This document shows, in pieces, positions 9,777 to 14,709 of a stretch of DNA of 22,677 bases. The stretch lies in the IMG/VR virus record IMGVR_UViG_3300045051_000102, positions 1-22,677 of that record; one strand, 5' to 3'. Every line of letters begins with the position of its first letter. Position 1 is the stretch's first letter. A model generated the notes under the pieces. It had not been told where the DNA came from and made no database searches. It saw nothing but the letters and a program-made list of their open reading frames with translations. The position numbers and the translations under genes were made by a program. The DNA is from a virus.

Positions 9777-10505
9777 ATGCCCGAAGTAACCGTCGCACAA
9801 ACCGAGAAAGGAACAGTCTACACAATCCAGCCCGCGAGGATGGCAGTCAAAGCTGTCGGAGATTGGGAACTGGATGTTCTGGCGATCCCGTTCGATAGCG
9901 TGGACGCCGACGGGCAATGGTTCGACGCCTCAACCGACATCATGGCGGACGCCTTCCAGACACCGCTGGCAGTTTACCAACACGGCGTAGAGCAAGGCGC
10001 AAAAGGTTTCCAGGGGAAACTGATCGTCGTTGGCAAGTCTGTCGCCGGGTCTCTGGCGAAGAAAGCTGACGGCTGGCACCTGCGGGTCGTTCTGGATAAG
10101 TCTGTCGCGCTGGCAAAAAACATCATGGACGCGGCATACAAAGGACTGGTTGCCGTTTCCAGTGGCTCTATTTCTCACCTTGCCCGGCTAGATGTGGGGG
10201 GGAAATTGATCCCCTACGACAAGGACCGCAAAGGACGGATCGCCGTCTGGCCGCTGGCGGAAGTCTCTTTGTGGGAAAAGGGCAACGGCAATTTCCAACC
10301 GGCAAACCGGCAGGCAATCGCCCTGCCGGTCATGAAAGCGATTTACAGGGATGCGGGTGTTCCCTTCCCTGACGTAAACAAGCCATCTAGTTTTACTAAC
10401 GGTTCCAGTGTCTATGCCTCAACTGAGGCGACGCGGGACGCGTGGAAAGCAGAGGTAACAAAAGCAAAAAAACACCTGGAAGCCCCAGGTAAGGATTTGA
10501 AATGA
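9777..10505 (+). CDS. Prohead maturation protease (HK97 family)
   Basis: 242 residues from the ATG at 9777, chosen because GAGG (9767-9770) sits 6 bases upstream; an in-frame ATG at 9765 would add four residues but has no SD. The family pattern is clear: early AIPFDSVDADGQWFDAST, then VYQHGVEQ with the likely catalytic His (about residue 69), then GLVAVSSGSISHLAR with the likely nucleophilic Ser (about 128-131), and RIAVWPLAEVSLWEKG. These herpesvirus-fold serine proteases cleave the scaffold (delta) domain of the capsid protein inside the prohead and then themselves. The gene overlaps the capsid gene by ATGA, as is typical. It lies just after a promoter-leader-terminator arrangement that may limit its transcription. 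Confidence 0.88.
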   Translation: MPEVTVAQTEKGTVYTIQPARMAVKAVGDWELDVLAIPFDSVDADGQWFDASTDIMADAFQTPLAVYQHGVEQGAKGFQGKLIVVGKSVAGSLAKKADGWHLRVVLDKSVALAKNIMDAAYKGLVAVSSGSISHLARLDVGGKLIPYDKDRKGRIAVWPLAEVSLWEKGNGNFQPANRQAIALPVMKAIYRDAGVPFPDVNKPSSFTNGSSVYASTEATRDAWKAEVTKAKKHLEAPGKDLK

Positions 10506-12064
10506 ACGAACTTGAAAAGAAACTTGCGGAAATCCGCAAAGCAATGAAAGCCCTCGTCGGCGTGGAAGATCCCACTGACGAGCAGGTGGAAAAACTGACC
10601 GGCTTGAACAAGGAAGCCGCAAAGCTCGAAGCGCAGATCGCCGCCGCGAAGCAACTGGACGAAGCCGAGAAAGAAGATGCTGCCCGGATCGAGCGCGAGA
10701 AGCGTGAAGCCGTGGAAGCGGCAGTCAAGGCGGAGCAAGCCAAGTCTCGCCGGCTGCAATTCTCGGAAGTCCCTTATCAGACGCAGTTTTCCGACACGAA
10801 CAAATACGACGAGCTGAGCGCAGGCGAAACCGCCCTCGTGATCGACATCCTGAACGCCAATGGTCGGCGTGTTTCCGGTGCAGCCTTCAAGGCGCTGACC
10901 CTCAAGATTGCCGAACTGAAAGATAACAACACCGACGAAAGCCGCAAGGGTGTCAACTACGTCAAAAACGCTTTCAAGGCGCACAATCCCGGTATCGACC
11001 TGGACCATGCCGCCGACGCAGTAAAGGCTGCGACTGACCCGATGTACTCGACCGGCGCAAACATTGGTACGGATTGGGTCGGCACGGCGTATTCAAACCA
11101 GATCTGGGAAGCCATCCGTGGGCAAAACGTGGTTGTTGATCGTGTTCCCTCGATCACCGTCCCCGATGGTTTTTCGTCCATCTATATCCCGCTGGAATCC
11201 AGCGACCCCACCTGGTACAAGGTGGCGGAAGCAACCACGGCAGATTCGACCCTCAAGGTTCCTGCCGCGACCATCACCGCTTCCCAGATGGCGACCGCCA
11301 ACAAGCAACTGACGCTCGGCAAATTGGGCGCACGTTCCATGTACACCGGGGAATTGACCGAAGATTCTCTGATCCCCTTCGCCCCCCAGCTCCGCCAACA
11401 GCTGACCGTTTCGGGCGGCAACACGCTCGAACACATCATGATCGACGGCGATACAGAAACATCCGCATCGAAGAACATCAACGCGATTGACACGACCCCG
11501 ACCGCTGGAACTGCTTACCTGTTCCTCAATGGTTTCCGCCAACTGGCATTGATCGCCAACACCGCCAACAGCCGCTCGGCTGGCGGCACGCTGTCTGAAG
11601 ACGATTACGTGGAAACACTGAAGCTCCTGGGCACGGCTGGACTGGCTGGTGCAGACCCCCGCGCCGTCGCGTTCATCGTGGATTACAACGTCCACTATGC
11701 CAATATGAAACTTACGTCCGTCAAGACCAAGGACGTGTTCAGCGCTGCGACACTTGAAAACGGTTTCGTCCGCCGGATGTTCGGCTATGAGGTTCTGCCC
11801 GCCTTCCAGATGCACAAGACATCTGCCAAGAGAATGGCGAATACCTCAGGCAAGATCGACGCCGACACAGATTCCAACAACACGACCGGCGCAATTCTGG
11901 CCGTCCGCTTTGACCAGTGGAAACAGGCTTTCAAACGCCGAATGACGCTTGAGACAACCCGCATTGCAAACGCTGATTCATGGGAGATCGTCGCCCTGGT
12001 TCGTTGGGGCATGGTCAACCGTGACGATGAGGCCAGCGCGATTTCATATAACGTCGGAGTTTAA
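10502..12064 (+). CDS. HK97-fold major capsid protein with N-terminal scaffold domain
   Basis: 520 residues. Residues 1-80 form a charged coiled coil (MNELEKKLAEIRKAMKALVG, then repeated EAEKEDAARIEREKREAVEA-type heptads), the expected delta scaffold that the upstream protease removes. From about 180 the capsid fold begins: AYSNQIWEAIRGQNVVVDRV, GFSSIYIPLESSDPTWYKVA, then the E-loop and P/A-domain stretch with KLGARSMYTGELTEDSLIPF. Toward the end come MFGYEVLPAFQMHK, AVRFDQWKQAFKRRMTLE and the C-terminal VALVRWGMVNRDDEASA. It polymerises into the icosahedral shell. The start overlaps the protease stop (ATGA). The length fits a protein that keeps its own scaffold instead of a separate scaffold gene. 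The tRNA-like RNA element begins 18 bases after the stop. Confidence 0.93.
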   Translation: MNELEKKLAEIRKAMKALVGVEDPTDEQVEKLTGLNKEAAKLEAQIAAAKQLDEAEKEDAARIEREKREAVEAAVKAEQAKSRRLQFSEVPYQTQFSDTNKYDELSAGETALVIDILNANGRRVSGAAFKALTLKIAELKDNNTDESRKGVNYVKNAFKAHNPGIDLDHAADAVKAATDPMYSTGANIGTDWVGTAYSNQIWEAIRGQNVVVDRVPSITVPDGFSSIYIPLESSDPTWYKVAEATTADSTLKVPAATITASQMATANKQLTLGKLGARSMYTGELTEDSLIPFAPQLRQQLTVSGGNTLEHIMIDGDTETSASKNINAIDTTPTAGTAYLFLNGFRQLALIANTANSRSAGGTLSEDDYVETLKLLGTAGLAGADPRAVAFIVDYNVHYANMKLTSVKTKDVFSAATLENGFVRRMFGYEVLPAFQMHKTSAKRMANTSGKIDADTDSNNTTGAILAVRFDQWKQAFKRRMTLETTRIANADSWEIVALVRWGMVNRDDEASAISYNVGV

Positions 12065-12081
12065 TACCGACGCTGTAGCAG

Positions 12082-12224
12082 TTCTCGTAAATTGAGCGTG
12101 GCGGAACTGGCATACGCAAGAGGCGACCCCAAAAGGGTTACGGCGAAAGCCTTAAGAGCGAACGTTAGCCAAGCCGAAAGGCAGGGGCTTGCAGGTTCAA
12201 ATCCTGCCGCTCAATTTACGAGAA
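12082..12224 (+). ncRNA. tRNA-Leu-like structured RNA on a perfect 17-bp stem
   Basis: TTCTCGTAAATTGAGCG (12082-12098) and its exact complement CGCTCAATTTACGAGAA (12208-12224) form a 17-bp stem. The inner 7 pairs (12092-12098 / 12208-12214) act as a tRNA acceptor stem. Next come T8-G9, a D-arm GCG-GAACTGGCATA-CGC (12101-12117) with A14, G18-G19 and A21 equivalents, as in bacterial tRNA-Leu, and at the 3' side a T-arm GCAGG-TTCAAAT-CCTGC (12191-12207). No 7-base anticodon loop is found. The 72 intervening bases hold small hairpins instead: GACCC-CAAAA-GGGTT (12125-12139), GGC-GAAA-GCC (12142-12151) and GCC-GAAA-GGC (12173-12182). The tRNA-like part is 123 bases, about 36 longer than a tRNA-Leu, and no CCA is encoded. 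It is probably not a decoding tRNA; it could be an RNase P or RNase III processing signal or a 3'-end protector of capsid mRNA. Confidence 0.7.
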
Positions 12225-12242
12225 ATCAATCCTGATACGAGA

Positions 12243-12269
12243 GCCTGATGAGTTGAAAAACTCGGAGGC
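12243..12269 (+). promoter_or_regulatory. Hairpin with internal loop before the first decoration-like gene
   Basis: GCCT (12243-12246) / AGGC (12266-12269) and GAGTT-GAAA-AACTC (12250-12263) stack with an asymmetric GAT/GG internal loop. The 3' strand contains a GGAGG (12264-12268) that would be sequestered. The nearer AAGGA (12272-12276), 9 bases before the ATG at 12286, stays free and is the likely ribosome binding site. Confidence 0.4.
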
Positions 12270-12285
12270 AAAAGGAAACTAGACA

Positions 12286-12699
12286 ATGGCAAACAATCAT
12301 TACCCCTATCTCGCCCGCGGCAACCAGCGCCAATTCACTGCTACGACCCGCACCACATTCAACATCGATAACGGCGCAGGCACGACCGCAGACGATGCAA
12401 GTGTGGGCCCGTTCCCCTTCGACTGCTGGATTACTGACGCCCGCGCAGTCTACACCGAAGCGACCGACACGACCGGCGCGGCTTCCGCCAATTTCAAAAC
12501 CGGCGTAGCTGCCGGCGGCGCAACACTTGTTGCTGCAACTGCCCTCGAAGCCCTCAAGTCCATCGGCGGATATACATCGGCGTCGCCCCTGGCGGTGCTT
12601 GTTCCCGCCAACACAACGATTTGGACCCGGCACACCGGCGTAGCCACAACGGAAGTCGGGCAGTATTTCGTGCAATACACCATCCTGCCCAAGCCTTAG
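12286..12699 (+). CDS. Beta-rich head decoration-like virion protein (copy 1)
   Basis: 137 residues, rich in Thr, Ala and Gly with alternating strand-forming segments (RQFTATTRTTFNIDNGAGTT, FPFDCWITDARAVYTEATDT, ASPLAVLVPANTTIWTR, VGQYFVQYTILPKP). Composition, size and position right after the major capsid gene suit a head decoration or stabilising protein; the assignment is contextual. AAGGA at 12272-12276 precedes the ATG. The first glycosyltransferase-like gene follows after 11 bases, and a second beta-rich protein lies about 0.9 kb downstream ahead of a paralogous enzyme. Confidence 0.55.
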   Translation: MANNHYPYLARGNQRQFTATTRTTFNIDNGAGTTADDASVGPFPFDCWITDARAVYTEATDTTGAASANFKTGVAAGGATLVAATALEALKSIGGYTSASPLAVLVPANTTIWTRHTGVATTEVGQYFVQYTILPKP

Positions 12700-12710
12700 A
12701 AAGTTAGTTC

Positions 12711-13370
12711 GTGGATCTGTCGCACTTTAAGAATTTACACGCGGGCGAAACCGCCCTGATCGTCGGCAACGGCCTGAACCTGCACCACACTCCGCCGCAT
12801 TGGTTCAAGTATCCAGCCTTCGGGATGAACACGATACACAAATGGATCGACTGGAACCCGACATATTACGTCGCCGTTGACCACCGGGTCTACCGGGAGT
12901 TTGGCGAGGAGATAAGCAGGAAGTACAAGTACATCCCTAAATTCGTCCTGTCGAACAAGCTGGACGAGTGGCAGGGTGACAACTTTGTGAGATTTCCGCA
13001 AAGCCTCAAGAGCGACATAAGGCTGGACGATCTGGAAAACGGTATCGCAGGCACAAACGTGATGCACTTCGCTATGCAGTTGGCGTATTACATGGGCTTT
13101 ACGACGCTGCTGATTATCGGGATGCAGCACAAACTAGACGCAGCGAAAGCTCACTTTTGGGGCACAGATGACGGAATAAGAAACCCCGCGCCGCTTCTGG
13201 AATGGTTCAGGATGTACAGGGAGATTGTCAAGGGAATGGCGGCGCGAGGCGTGGGGGTTCTGAATATTTCCGAGGATACGTATGTGCCAGATGAGGTGAT
13301 CCCGCGTGGAAATTGGAGAGACTATGAAAAAAGTAAGGTTCTTACAAGACTTTCAGGGTCGCGAGACTAA
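12711..13370 (+). CDS. DUF115/GT42-like putative glycosyltransferase, copy 1
   Basis: 219 residues with a GTG start. The start is supported by end-to-end alignment with the paralogue at 14008, whose ATG matches the same residue (MDLSHFKNLHAGETALIVGN versus MQLADFHNYHRGQTCLIVGV). Key elements: nucleotide-binding-like loop LIVGNGLNL (about 16-24), FGMNTIHKW, NPTYYVAVD, then GTNVMHFAMQLAYYMGFTTL and LIIGMQHK near 135, AHFWG, and a C-terminal VLNISEDTYVPDEVIPRGNW. The order G-x-G-x-x-L ... N ... G-T/S ... A ... G-F/Y ... G resembles DUF115 (MptE-like) and GT42 sialyltransferase folds. I infer sugar-nucleotide chemistry, perhaps modifying a virion or host surface; this is not proven. The SD is weak. 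The 3' end overlaps the next gene by 47 bases. Confidence 0.6.
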   Translation: MDLSHFKNLHAGETALIVGNGLNLHHTPPHWFKYPAFGMNTIHKWIDWNPTYYVAVDHRVYREFGEEISRKYKYIPKFVLSNKLDEWQGDNFVRFPQSLKSDIRLDDLENGIAGTNVMHFAMQLAYYMGFTTLLIIGMQHKLDAAKAHFWGTDDGIRNPAPLLEWFRMYREIVKGMAARGVGVLNISEDTYVPDEVIPRGNWRDYEKSKVLTRLSGSRD

Positions 13371-13629: not shown

Positions 13630-14006
13630 GAAAACAGGTTTTCTCTTGGACAACCGACGCAAGCGGCGACGCGACCGTTGGACAAAGCACGTCTAGCGCA
13701 CAGGCAACTGTTTTTGGTTTGCTTCGTGCAATCGCCTATCTCCCCGGCACTACGGACACCGGAGCGACTGTGACCGTTACTTGTGTTGGAAACATAACAT
13801 CGACCCTGCTTACCAAAGCCACCGCCGGGACATCCAATGTGATGTTCTACCCGCGCATTGTGCAGAACGGCAACACCGACGGCGCAGCCCTGACCGGGAC
13901 CGCAGGCGGCGACCGCACGCAAATCCTCATGGAAGGCAAGATCAAAGTTGTGATTGCGTCCGGCGGGAATGGCGGGGCTGGCTCACTGGTTGTTTACTAC
14001 GAATAA
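13626..14006 (+). CDS. Beta-rich head decoration-like virion protein (copy 2 of the module)
   Basis: 126 residues, MRKQVFSWTTDASGDATVGQ onward, then ATVTVTCVGNITSTLLTKAT-like strands and a C-terminal KIKVVIASGGNGGAGSLVVYYE. Thr/Gly/Val-rich composition with many short strands fits a virion surface or head-stabilising protein. Sequence similarity to the protein at 12286 is low by eye, so this is a second module member rather than a clear duplicate. Only one base separates it from the second glycosyltransferase-like gene. Confidence 0.55.
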   Translation: MRKQVFSWTTDASGDATVGQSTSSAQATVFGLLRAIAYLPGTTDTGATVTVTCVGNITSTLLTKATAGTSNVMFYPRIVQNGNTDGAALTGTAGGDRTQILMEGKIKVVIASGGNGGAGSLVVYYE

Positions 14007-14007
14007 C

Positions 14008-14709
14008 ATGCAGCTCGCAGACTTCCACAACTACCACCGCGGGCAAACCTGCCTGATCGTCGGCGTAGGTCCAAACCTCCACCTGACGCCGCCAGCATGG
14101 TTTGACTACGTATCTTTTGGCGTCAACACCATCTACAAGTATGACGGTTGGAACCCGACCTATTATGTCGGCGTGGATGAACGCCTGCGCCTCGAAGATG
14201 GCGCGGCAATTGTGGAACGCTACCCAGACACGCCTAAGTTTTTCCCGACGCCGGATTGGGACGAATTGAAGGGTGAGAATATCTACCGCTTCAAGCACCG
14301 CGCCGGGATAGATTTTGTCGTCGGCGGACATCTGCCCTCTCACCGCGACGCACTCACGCAACACGGCATCACCTACCGCCGCATTATGGACGCGGTATTC
14401 CAGATTGCGTGGCACATGGGATTTACGACCATGCTCATGATCGGCGTACAGCACAAGCCGAACCAGGGGAAGCACGACGACACGGCGCACTTTTGGGGCG
14501 ATGATTTGAGGGCGGTACAGGACCAACCGAATACATGGTGGTTTGATGGCTACCGCTACTTTTCCAACATCCCCGGTATCCGCGTGCTGAATATCTCAGA
14601 GGATACCTACGTCCCCAAAGATGTATTGCCCCGCGATGATTGGTGGAAGTGGGCGAATAACCCGACGGTGACGAAAGCGCCGCATTATACCGAGTGGGTG
14701 CGAGCATGA
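14008..14709 (+). CDS. DUF115/GT42-like putative glycosyltransferase, copy 2
   Basis: 233 residues. ATG at 14008, one base after the previous stop; an upstream GC-rich extension from 13954 is out of register with the paralogue and rejected. By hand about 37 of the first 60 residues match the 12711 protein, including CLIVGVGPNL (about 15-24), FGVNTIYK, GWNPTYYVGVDE, MGFTTMLMIGVQHK, AHFWGDD and VLNISEDTYVPKDVLPRDDW. A segment around residues 95-130 (GIDFVVGGHLPSHRDALTQH) is longer and differs from copy 1, and the small loop GTNVMHFAMQ there becomes TYRRIMDAVF, so substrate or activity may differ. This copy keeps the G-x-G-P-N-L glycine loop seen in sugar-nucleotide enzymes of this fold. It overlaps the next small gene by ATGA. 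Confidence 0.62.
   Translation: MQLADFHNYHRGQTCLIVGVGPNLHLTPPAWFDYVSFGVNTIYKYDGWNPTYYVGVDERLRLEDGAAIVERYPDTPKFFPTPDWDELKGENIYRFKHRAGIDFVVGGHLPSHRDALTQHGITYRRIMDAVFQIAWHMGFTTMLMIGVQHKPNQGKHDDTAHFWGDDLRAVQDQPNTWWFDGYRYFSNIPGIRVLNISEDTYVPKDVLPRDDWWKWANNPTVTKAPHYTEWVRA

What the first reader, a model, noticed from the sequence alone, without database searches (positions are those of the whole stretch)
12082..12224. A tRNA-Leu-like RNA without an anticodon arm, mounted on a perfect 17-bp stem after the capsid gene
Acceptor stem, D-arm with G18-G19, and a T-arm with TTCAAAT are all present and correctly spaced at the two ends. The middle 72 bases, however, form small GNRA-capped hairpins rather than a 7-base anticodon loop. 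The acceptor helix continues without mismatch to 17 pairs, far beyond any tRNA. This looks like a tRNA mimic used for RNA processing, mRNA 3'-end protection or stoichiometry control after the most abundant virion transcript. An intron-bearing or remodelled tRNA-Leu is the alternative.
Basis: partly seen in the sequence, partly recalled or inferred. Interest (0 to 1): 0.88.

Follow-up and report, generated by a model that had tools for sequence, protein, structure and literature searches.

The report
Anticodon-less tRNA-Leu mimic behind phage gene
Directly behind a phage's main shell-protein gene sits an RNA that keeps the elbow of a leucine tRNA but has lost the part that reads codons. It is mounted on a long stem and probably acts as a structural tail of the messenger, and it belongs to a large, apparently undescribed set of decoding-incompetent tRNA look-alikes found mainly in viral DNA.

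Summary
Window 12082-12224 holds a perfect 17-bp stem, a complete tRNA-Leu-type D-arm and T-arm, and 73 nt between them without an anticodon arm. No single intron removal restores one, although the same test recovers two true insert-bearing tRNAs. One close homologue exists (L079, another phage contig). Its core is conserved, while its acceptor, T-stem, outer stem and an inner hairpin differ by paired, compensatory changes. It too lies directly behind a virion gene (portal). The outer stem is therefore probably selected for.

In capsid-homologous loci the same gap usually carries a short GC-rich hairpin. In the window the conserved leader after the stop codon is intact, but the element lies in front of it and the GC-rich hairpin is gone. 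Best reading: a tRNA-Leu-derived 3'UTR/intercistronic module that replaced that hairpin and stabilises or processes the capsid mRNA (inferred, not shown). U73 and the paired ends argue against leucylation and ordinary RNase P maturation.

More than 80 distinct Leu-type tRNA-like RNAs without an anticodon arm turned up in viral contigs, against about two in 257 Gb of cellular genomes (narrower pattern). Rfam knows them at most as weak "tRNA". T4 RNA C, function unknown, is the nearest studied analogue.

The parts
10502..12064 (+). major head (capsid) protein gene in front of the element
   Evidence: 520 aa; PHROG 10 major head protein E 9e-4; 35-69% identical homologues in viral contigs
12065..12081 (+). 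17-nt spacer gained together with the element; its 5' part (CCGACG 12067-12072) pairs with CGTCGG 12052-12057 around the stop codon
   Evidence: absent from relatives, in which the conserved leader follows the stop codon
12082..12091 (+). 5' strand of the 10-bp outer extension of the acceptor stem
   Evidence: a differing but complementary outer stem in L079
12092..12098 (+). acceptor stem, 5' strand (TTGAGCG)
   Evidence: two compensatory pairs against L079
12099..12117 (+). U8-G9 and tRNA-Leu-type D-arm with A14, G18G19
   Evidence: sequence; identical in L079; matches tRNA-Leu of a Microcystis phage
12118..12166 (+). region that replaces the anticodon arm: small hairpins, among them GGC-GAAA-GCC (12142-12151); no 7-nt anticodon loop
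12167..12190 (+). variable-arm analogue: AGCC/GGCT enclosing GCC-GAAA-GGC, then T before the T-stem
   Evidence: outer pairs conserved, inner hairpin covaries (AGT-GAA-ACT) in L079
12191..12207 (+). T-arm (GCAGG-TTCAAAT-CCTGC)
   Evidence: two compensatory pairs against L079
12208..12224 (+). 3' strand of acceptor stem (12208-12214) and of outer extension (12215-12224); nt 73 is U and paired, no CCA
12225..12285 (+). conserved intercistronic leader (GATACGAGAGCCTGAT..GAGGCAAAAGGA) in which the GC-rich hairpin of relatives is missing and a 6-bp UGAGUU-type hairpin remains

Best explanation
The element is a tRNA-Leu-derived structural RNA that can no longer decode. It was inserted between the stop codon and the conserved intercistronic leader of the capsid gene and is kept under selection. 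It is read through as part of the late structural mRNA. The acceptor and T-stems stack into one 22-bp helix, closed at the top by an intact tRNA elbow (D-loop/T-loop contacts), while the anticodon and variable arms are small GNRA-type hairpins. Most likely it does the job of the GC-rich hairpin that relatives have at this spot: it blocks 3'->5' exonucleases and/or sets a cut by a double-strand RNase, so that the capsid message is separated from, and outlives, the downstream message. Shown here: the anatomy, the compensatory changes against one homologue, the position right behind two different virion genes, the insertion, and the loss of the standard hairpin. Inferred: that the tRNA fold forms, that RNase III-type processing or exonuclease blocking occurs, and that capsid expression depends on it.
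For: Homologue L079 keeps the core (AGGCGACC, CCTTAAGAGCGAA, TTAGCCAAG, GGGCTT) but changes both partners in 2 acceptor pairs, 2 T-stem pairs and at least 4 outer pairs, and in an inner hairpin. Its stem is 11 bp + one mismatch + 11 bp, and the stop codon of its portal gene lies in the outer helix. Of 57 capsid-homologous loci examined none has a T-arm in the 400 nt behind the capsid gene, and roughly 40 have a 7-16-bp, mostly GC-rich hairpin in that gap. In the window the leader GATACGA-AGCCTGAT..GAGGCAAA follows the element and the GC-rich hairpin is missing. There is no promoter-like site, and the only terminator-like site in 11700-12800 lies inside the next gene, which fits an mRNA-embedded element. 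nt 73 is U and paired in both homologues, against A73 in 65 of 88 Leu-type relatives. Single-intron removal gives no anticodon arm.
Against: Only one close homologue was found, and the window and L079 cores fold differently in places. No transcript data exist. Why a tRNA elbow would be kept if only a strong stem is needed is not explained by mRNA protection alone. Two other long-stem elements (L127, L063) do not sit behind an obvious virion gene.
Confidence: 0.45

Rival explanations
1. It is a free-standing stable small RNA, cut out of the late transcript and then working in trans, comparable to T4 RNA C: a tRNA scaffold makes it stable while the remodelled middle binds something.
For: Many Leu-type relatives have an ordinary 7-bp acceptor with A73 and sit in intergenic or tRNA-array settings. 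T4 RNA C ends in a T-arm and tRNA-like acceptor, is a late RNA seen by Northern blot, and has no known function (PMC9697503). The conserved core sequence between window and L079 suggests more than a mere stem.
Against: In the window and L079 the 5' and 3' flanks are paired for 10 or more bp beyond the acceptor (one mismatch in L079), which hides the usual RNase P and RNase Z sites. There is no own promoter and no encoded CCA.
Confidence: 0.27
2. It is a decoy: a tRNA-shaped RNA that occupies a tRNA-binding host factor or a tRNA-cutting defence enzyme, harmless because it cannot decode.
For: The L-shape contacts of tRNA-Leu are complete. Anticodon-less tRNA look-alikes appear enriched in viral over cellular DNA and have fast-changing middles.
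Against: Known tRNA-cutting defences mostly cut the anticodon loop (general knowledge), which is the missing part. No defence or counter-defence gene was recognised beside it in the window.
Confidence: 0.13
3. It is an intron-bearing tRNA-Leu, or one whose anticodon arm is restored by splicing.
For: The D-arm, T-arm and variable arm are of tRNA-Leu type. True insert-bearing tRNAs do occur in viral contigs (L094, L102, and 31 of 82 class-I hits).
Against: Exhaustive single-segment removal gives no arm with 4 or more of 5 pairs and T33 in either homologue, for any anticodon. The positive controls L102 and L094 are recovered, and the whole Leu-type set is at the shuffled level (7 of 91 against 41 of 455).
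Confidence: 0.03
4. It is the decaying remnant of an inserted tRNA-Leu gene without present function.
For: It is absent from all 57 capsid relatives examined, so it is a recent or sporadic insertion.
Against: Compensatory changes in acceptor, T-stem and outer stem and a conserved core between two otherwise unrelated contigs; the 17-bp stem is perfect.
Confidence: 0.08

Closest known systems
Phage T4 RNA C (species 1 RNA, rnaC)
   Same: phage-encoded RNA of about 140 nt with a tRNA T-arm and tRNA-like acceptor 3' half (CCGGGTTCGAATCCCGG-CGTTTCG), U at nt 73, late expression (PMC9697503)
   Different: stands in a tRNA gene cluster rather than behind a virion gene; no Leu-type D-arm; no 17-bp stem; no sequence match
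tRNA-Leu (class II tRNA)
   Same: U8, A14, A15-U48, G18G19, T54-A58, C56, D-arm sequence, 7-bp acceptor, long variable arm before the T-stem
   Different: no anticodon stem-loop, U73 instead of A73, no CCA, acceptor continued to 17 bp
tmRNA (tRNA-like domain with remodelled middle)
   Same: tRNA-like ends joined to a non-anticodon middle
   Different: no Rfam tmRNA match; complete D-arm; Leu- rather than Ala-type; paired 3' end; far too short
tRNA-like structures at the 3' ends of plant viral RNAs
   Same: tRNA mimic as a 3'-end element of a message
   Different: DNA phage, intercistronic, 3' end paired and without CCA, so it cannot be aminoacylated as drawn; no pseudoknotted acceptor
intercistronic mRNA-stabilising stem-loops (REP-type and the capsid 3' hairpins of this phage group)
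   Same: same place, same strand, stable stem, no U-tract
   Different: simple hairpin; here a whole tRNA-like fold caps the stem

Membership tests
tRNA-Leu (decoding) | 7-bp acceptor, D-arm and T-arm with elbow nucleotides | tested here: met
tRNA-Leu (decoding) | 5-bp anticodon stem with 7-nt loop carrying a Leu anticodon, directly or after removal of one intron | tested here: not met
tRNA-Leu (decoding) | A73 discriminator and free 3' end for CCA | tested here: not met
   U73, paired in the extension
tmRNA | match to the tmRNA covariance models | tested here: not met
   Rfam at gathering and at E up to 5
T4 RNA C type phage stable RNA | sequence or structural homology to rnaC | tested here: inconclusive
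   T-arm and acceptor shared in kind, no recognisable common core by eye; no formal comparison run
T4 RNA C type phage stable RNA | discrete stable transcript | not testable with these tools
   needs RNA data
viral aminoacylatable tRNA-like structure | 3' CCA end that is charged | tested here: not met
   no CCA at 12215; 3' flank paired; charging itself not testable here
group I intron or other Rfam RNA | match to a curated family | tested here: not met
virus-enriched anticodon-less Leu-type tRNA-like RNAs (defined here) | Leu-type D-arm and T-arm, 7/7 acceptor pairs, 55-85-nt middle without anticodon arm | tested here: met
   88 distinct members in the same scan

The most novel reading that the evidence does not exclude
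Phages encode a large, undescribed superfamily of tRNA-scaffolded, decoding-incompetent RNAs. The tRNA elbow and ends are held constant, and the anticodon arm is replaced by fast-evolving modules, often a pseudoknot. The window element is a long-stem branch that has been recruited as the 3' end of late structural mRNAs.
Probability: 0.4. Interest if true: 0.88.

Novelty: new variant of a known kind. Interest (0 to 1): 0.72.

Why it matters
T4 RNA C and RNA D have been known for decades without a function. A sizeable, virus-enriched set of tRNA-shaped RNAs that cannot decode, some with clear compensatory changes, would turn that orphan into a class with many natural variants to test. The window element adds a specific, testable case: a tRNA mimic that has taken the place of the standard stem-loop behind a capsid gene. 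Standard annotation misses it, since ARAGORN and Rfam report nothing here.

Tried and rejected
An intron-bearing tRNA was rejected by exhaustive single-deletion search with positive controls. tmRNA and other Rfam families: no match. A closer homologue set was sought with four motif scans: only L079 is a homologue, and the other matches read without the tRNA-like ends, most likely coding DNA. GenBank phages: only T-arm or D-arm matches to ordinary tRNAs, no relative of the capsid protein, no match for Leu-type member L040. A P1/P3 pseudoknot shared by the whole Leu-type class: enriched over shuffles (71% against 49% of inserts), but in L079 alone it is not significant (p about 0.3), so it is not claimed for the window. 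A tmRNA-like tag frame GCG..TAA at 12123-12155, with an in-frame length difference in L079, rests on two sequences and was not pursued. The class-I control scan was meant to show that the class is Leu-only and did not: class-I tRNA-like RNAs with long middles are also common. Literature searches found no description of such a class in the open-access library, which does not exclude one elsewhere.

Full report
WHAT IS THERE. The window is a 22,677-base virus record from IMG/VR with terminase, portal, capsid and tape-measure genes. Eighteen bases behind the capsid stop codon (12062-12064) begins a perfect 17-bp helix (12082-12098 with 12208-12224; duplex -25.4 kcal/mol). Its inner seven pairs are the acceptor stem of a tRNA-like fold with U8, a Leu-type D-arm and a T-arm, all correctly spaced. 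The folding z-score is -4.5, with no shuffle as stable. Forcing the tRNA-like fold costs only 0.5 kcal/mol against the unconstrained optimum. ARAGORN and Rfam do not recognise it.

NO ANTICODON ARM, WITH OR WITHOUT SPLICING. Every removal of one internal segment of 10 or more nt was tested for a 5-bp/7-nt anticodon arm. The window and L079 give none, even with four of five pairs and any anticodon. Two true insert-bearing tRNAs (L102, L094) are recovered. The Leu-type set as a whole is at the shuffled level, 7 of 91 against 41 of 455.

THE ONE CLOSE HOMOLOGUE. L079, from another viral contig, was found by the tRNA-Leu pattern scan. Its core is nearly identical while its helices differ in sequence and remain paired. 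Acceptor TTGAGCG/CGCTCAA against TGCAGCG/CGCTGCA has two double changes. T-stem GCAGG/CCTGC against GTGGG/CCCAC has two. The inner hairpin of the variable arm is GCC-GAAA-GGC against AGT-GAA-ACT. The outer stem is different in sequence: in L079 it is four further pairs, one C-A mismatch and eleven more pairs, three of these positions G-U or in an A+T-rich tract, with at least four double changes in the first ten positions. In L079 the element lies directly behind the portal gene, whose TAA stop codon falls inside the outer helix. A long stem beyond the acceptor is rare in the class. Of 88 distinct members 79 have 0-1 further pairs; L127 has 15 and L063 has 10.

HOW IT GOT THERE. Of 57 capsid-homologous loci examined, none has a T-arm in the 400 nt behind the capsid gene. 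About 40 of them have a 7-16-bp, mostly GC-rich hairpin in the gap. The gap in several of them follows one plan: stop codon, GATACGATAGCCTGAT, hairpin, GAGGCAAAGGA. In the window this leader is intact but comes after the element, and its GC-rich hairpin is missing. The element plus a 17-nt spacer is therefore best read as an insertion between the stop codon and the leader. The loss of the ordinary hairpin where a stronger stem has been gained is the main argument for a shared job. The Leu-type D-arm is absent from the 19 capsid-related records that were searched whole; of the 20 records searched, only L079 has it.

HOW IT PROBABLY WORKS. The element has no own promoter-like site, and the only terminator-like site in the stretch lies inside the next gene. 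Nucleotide 73 is U and paired, and there is no CCA, so charging with leucine and normal RNase P or RNase Z maturation are unlikely unless the outer helix is first opened or cut. The acceptor and T-stem together make a 22-bp helix, which is long enough for RNase III-type enzymes (general knowledge). The most economical reading is an mRNA-embedded barrier or processing site behind a highly expressed virion gene. The steps from structure to mRNA half-life are inferred.

THE WIDER CLASS. Eighty-eight distinct ones have complete acceptor and near-complete T-stem pairing, and nearly all lack an anticodon arm. A narrower version of the pattern over 257 Gb of cellular genomes gave ten hits, of which about two (L137, L144) are single long-insert elements; five of the others are tandem tRNAs and three were not resolved. 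The patterns and collections differ, so this supports viral enrichment but does not measure it. Thirty-six of the 88 share the acceptor AGTCAGG, and 65 have A73. In one sub-family (L105, L024, L134) a pseudoknot replaces the anticodon arm and its second helix is changed wholesale but complementary in all three. Bacteroides phage BS-TP2 carries a member that its record does not annotate. The nearest studied analogue is T4 RNA C, whose function is unknown.

LIMITS. There is one close homologue, no transcript data, and no metagenome scan. The literature search covers an open-access library only.

Noticed in passing
L244, L203, L205, L206, L172, L155, L265, L262 and others: Viral-contig tRNAs with a normal 7-nt anticodon loop but a roughly 30-57-nt insertion in the 5' strand of the anticodon stem, mostly after nt 28 or 29. 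Many inserts carry a hairpin followed by ACAGCAA, or end in GTTACTT. They look like a small intron or fifth arm that I could not find described; 31 of 82 distinct class-I hits fit (no shuffled control run).
   Followed up: partly
L178, L190, L191, L200, L207, L209, L217, L233, L245: A recurrent class-I tRNA-like RNA without anticodon loop: an inner stem such as CCTCC/GGAGG that covaries, enclosing GGT-GAAGG-ACC, then GGTAAANNAAGCC.
   Followed up: partly
L042, L045, L061, L067, L082, L130, L131, L132 and T4 rnaD in L136: A motif GTTCCCT-GAG-AAGGAA occurs in several phage contigs, often right behind a Leu-type tRNA-like RNA, and also inside T4 RNA D.
   Followed up: no
upstream of the L017, L042, L105, L071 elements: A small hairpin TTGACAG-NNN-GGAAAGAC with variable stem stands just in front of some tRNA-like RNAs (GGAAAGAC type in 9 of 119).
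   Followed up: no
window 12052-12072: A CGTCGG..CCGACG hairpin wraps the capsid stop codon.
   Followed up: no
window 12123-12155 and the matching part of L079: Open frame GCG..CCT-TAA (ATPKGLRRKP, against ATYMVTDNRKRP in L079) with an in-frame length difference; could be chance or a tag-like frame.
   Followed up: no
window 12711-13370 and 13954-14709: Two genes with a shared motif (LIVGxGxNLHxTPPxWF), the first with a weak sialyltransferase-like match, stand in the head-gene operon.
   Followed up: no
L079 957-2768 (minus): Putative head-morphogenesis protein with an intein-like stretch (FYHDGDIFVINTASGKFLPVTANHPVLTRRGWVAA).
   Followed up: no
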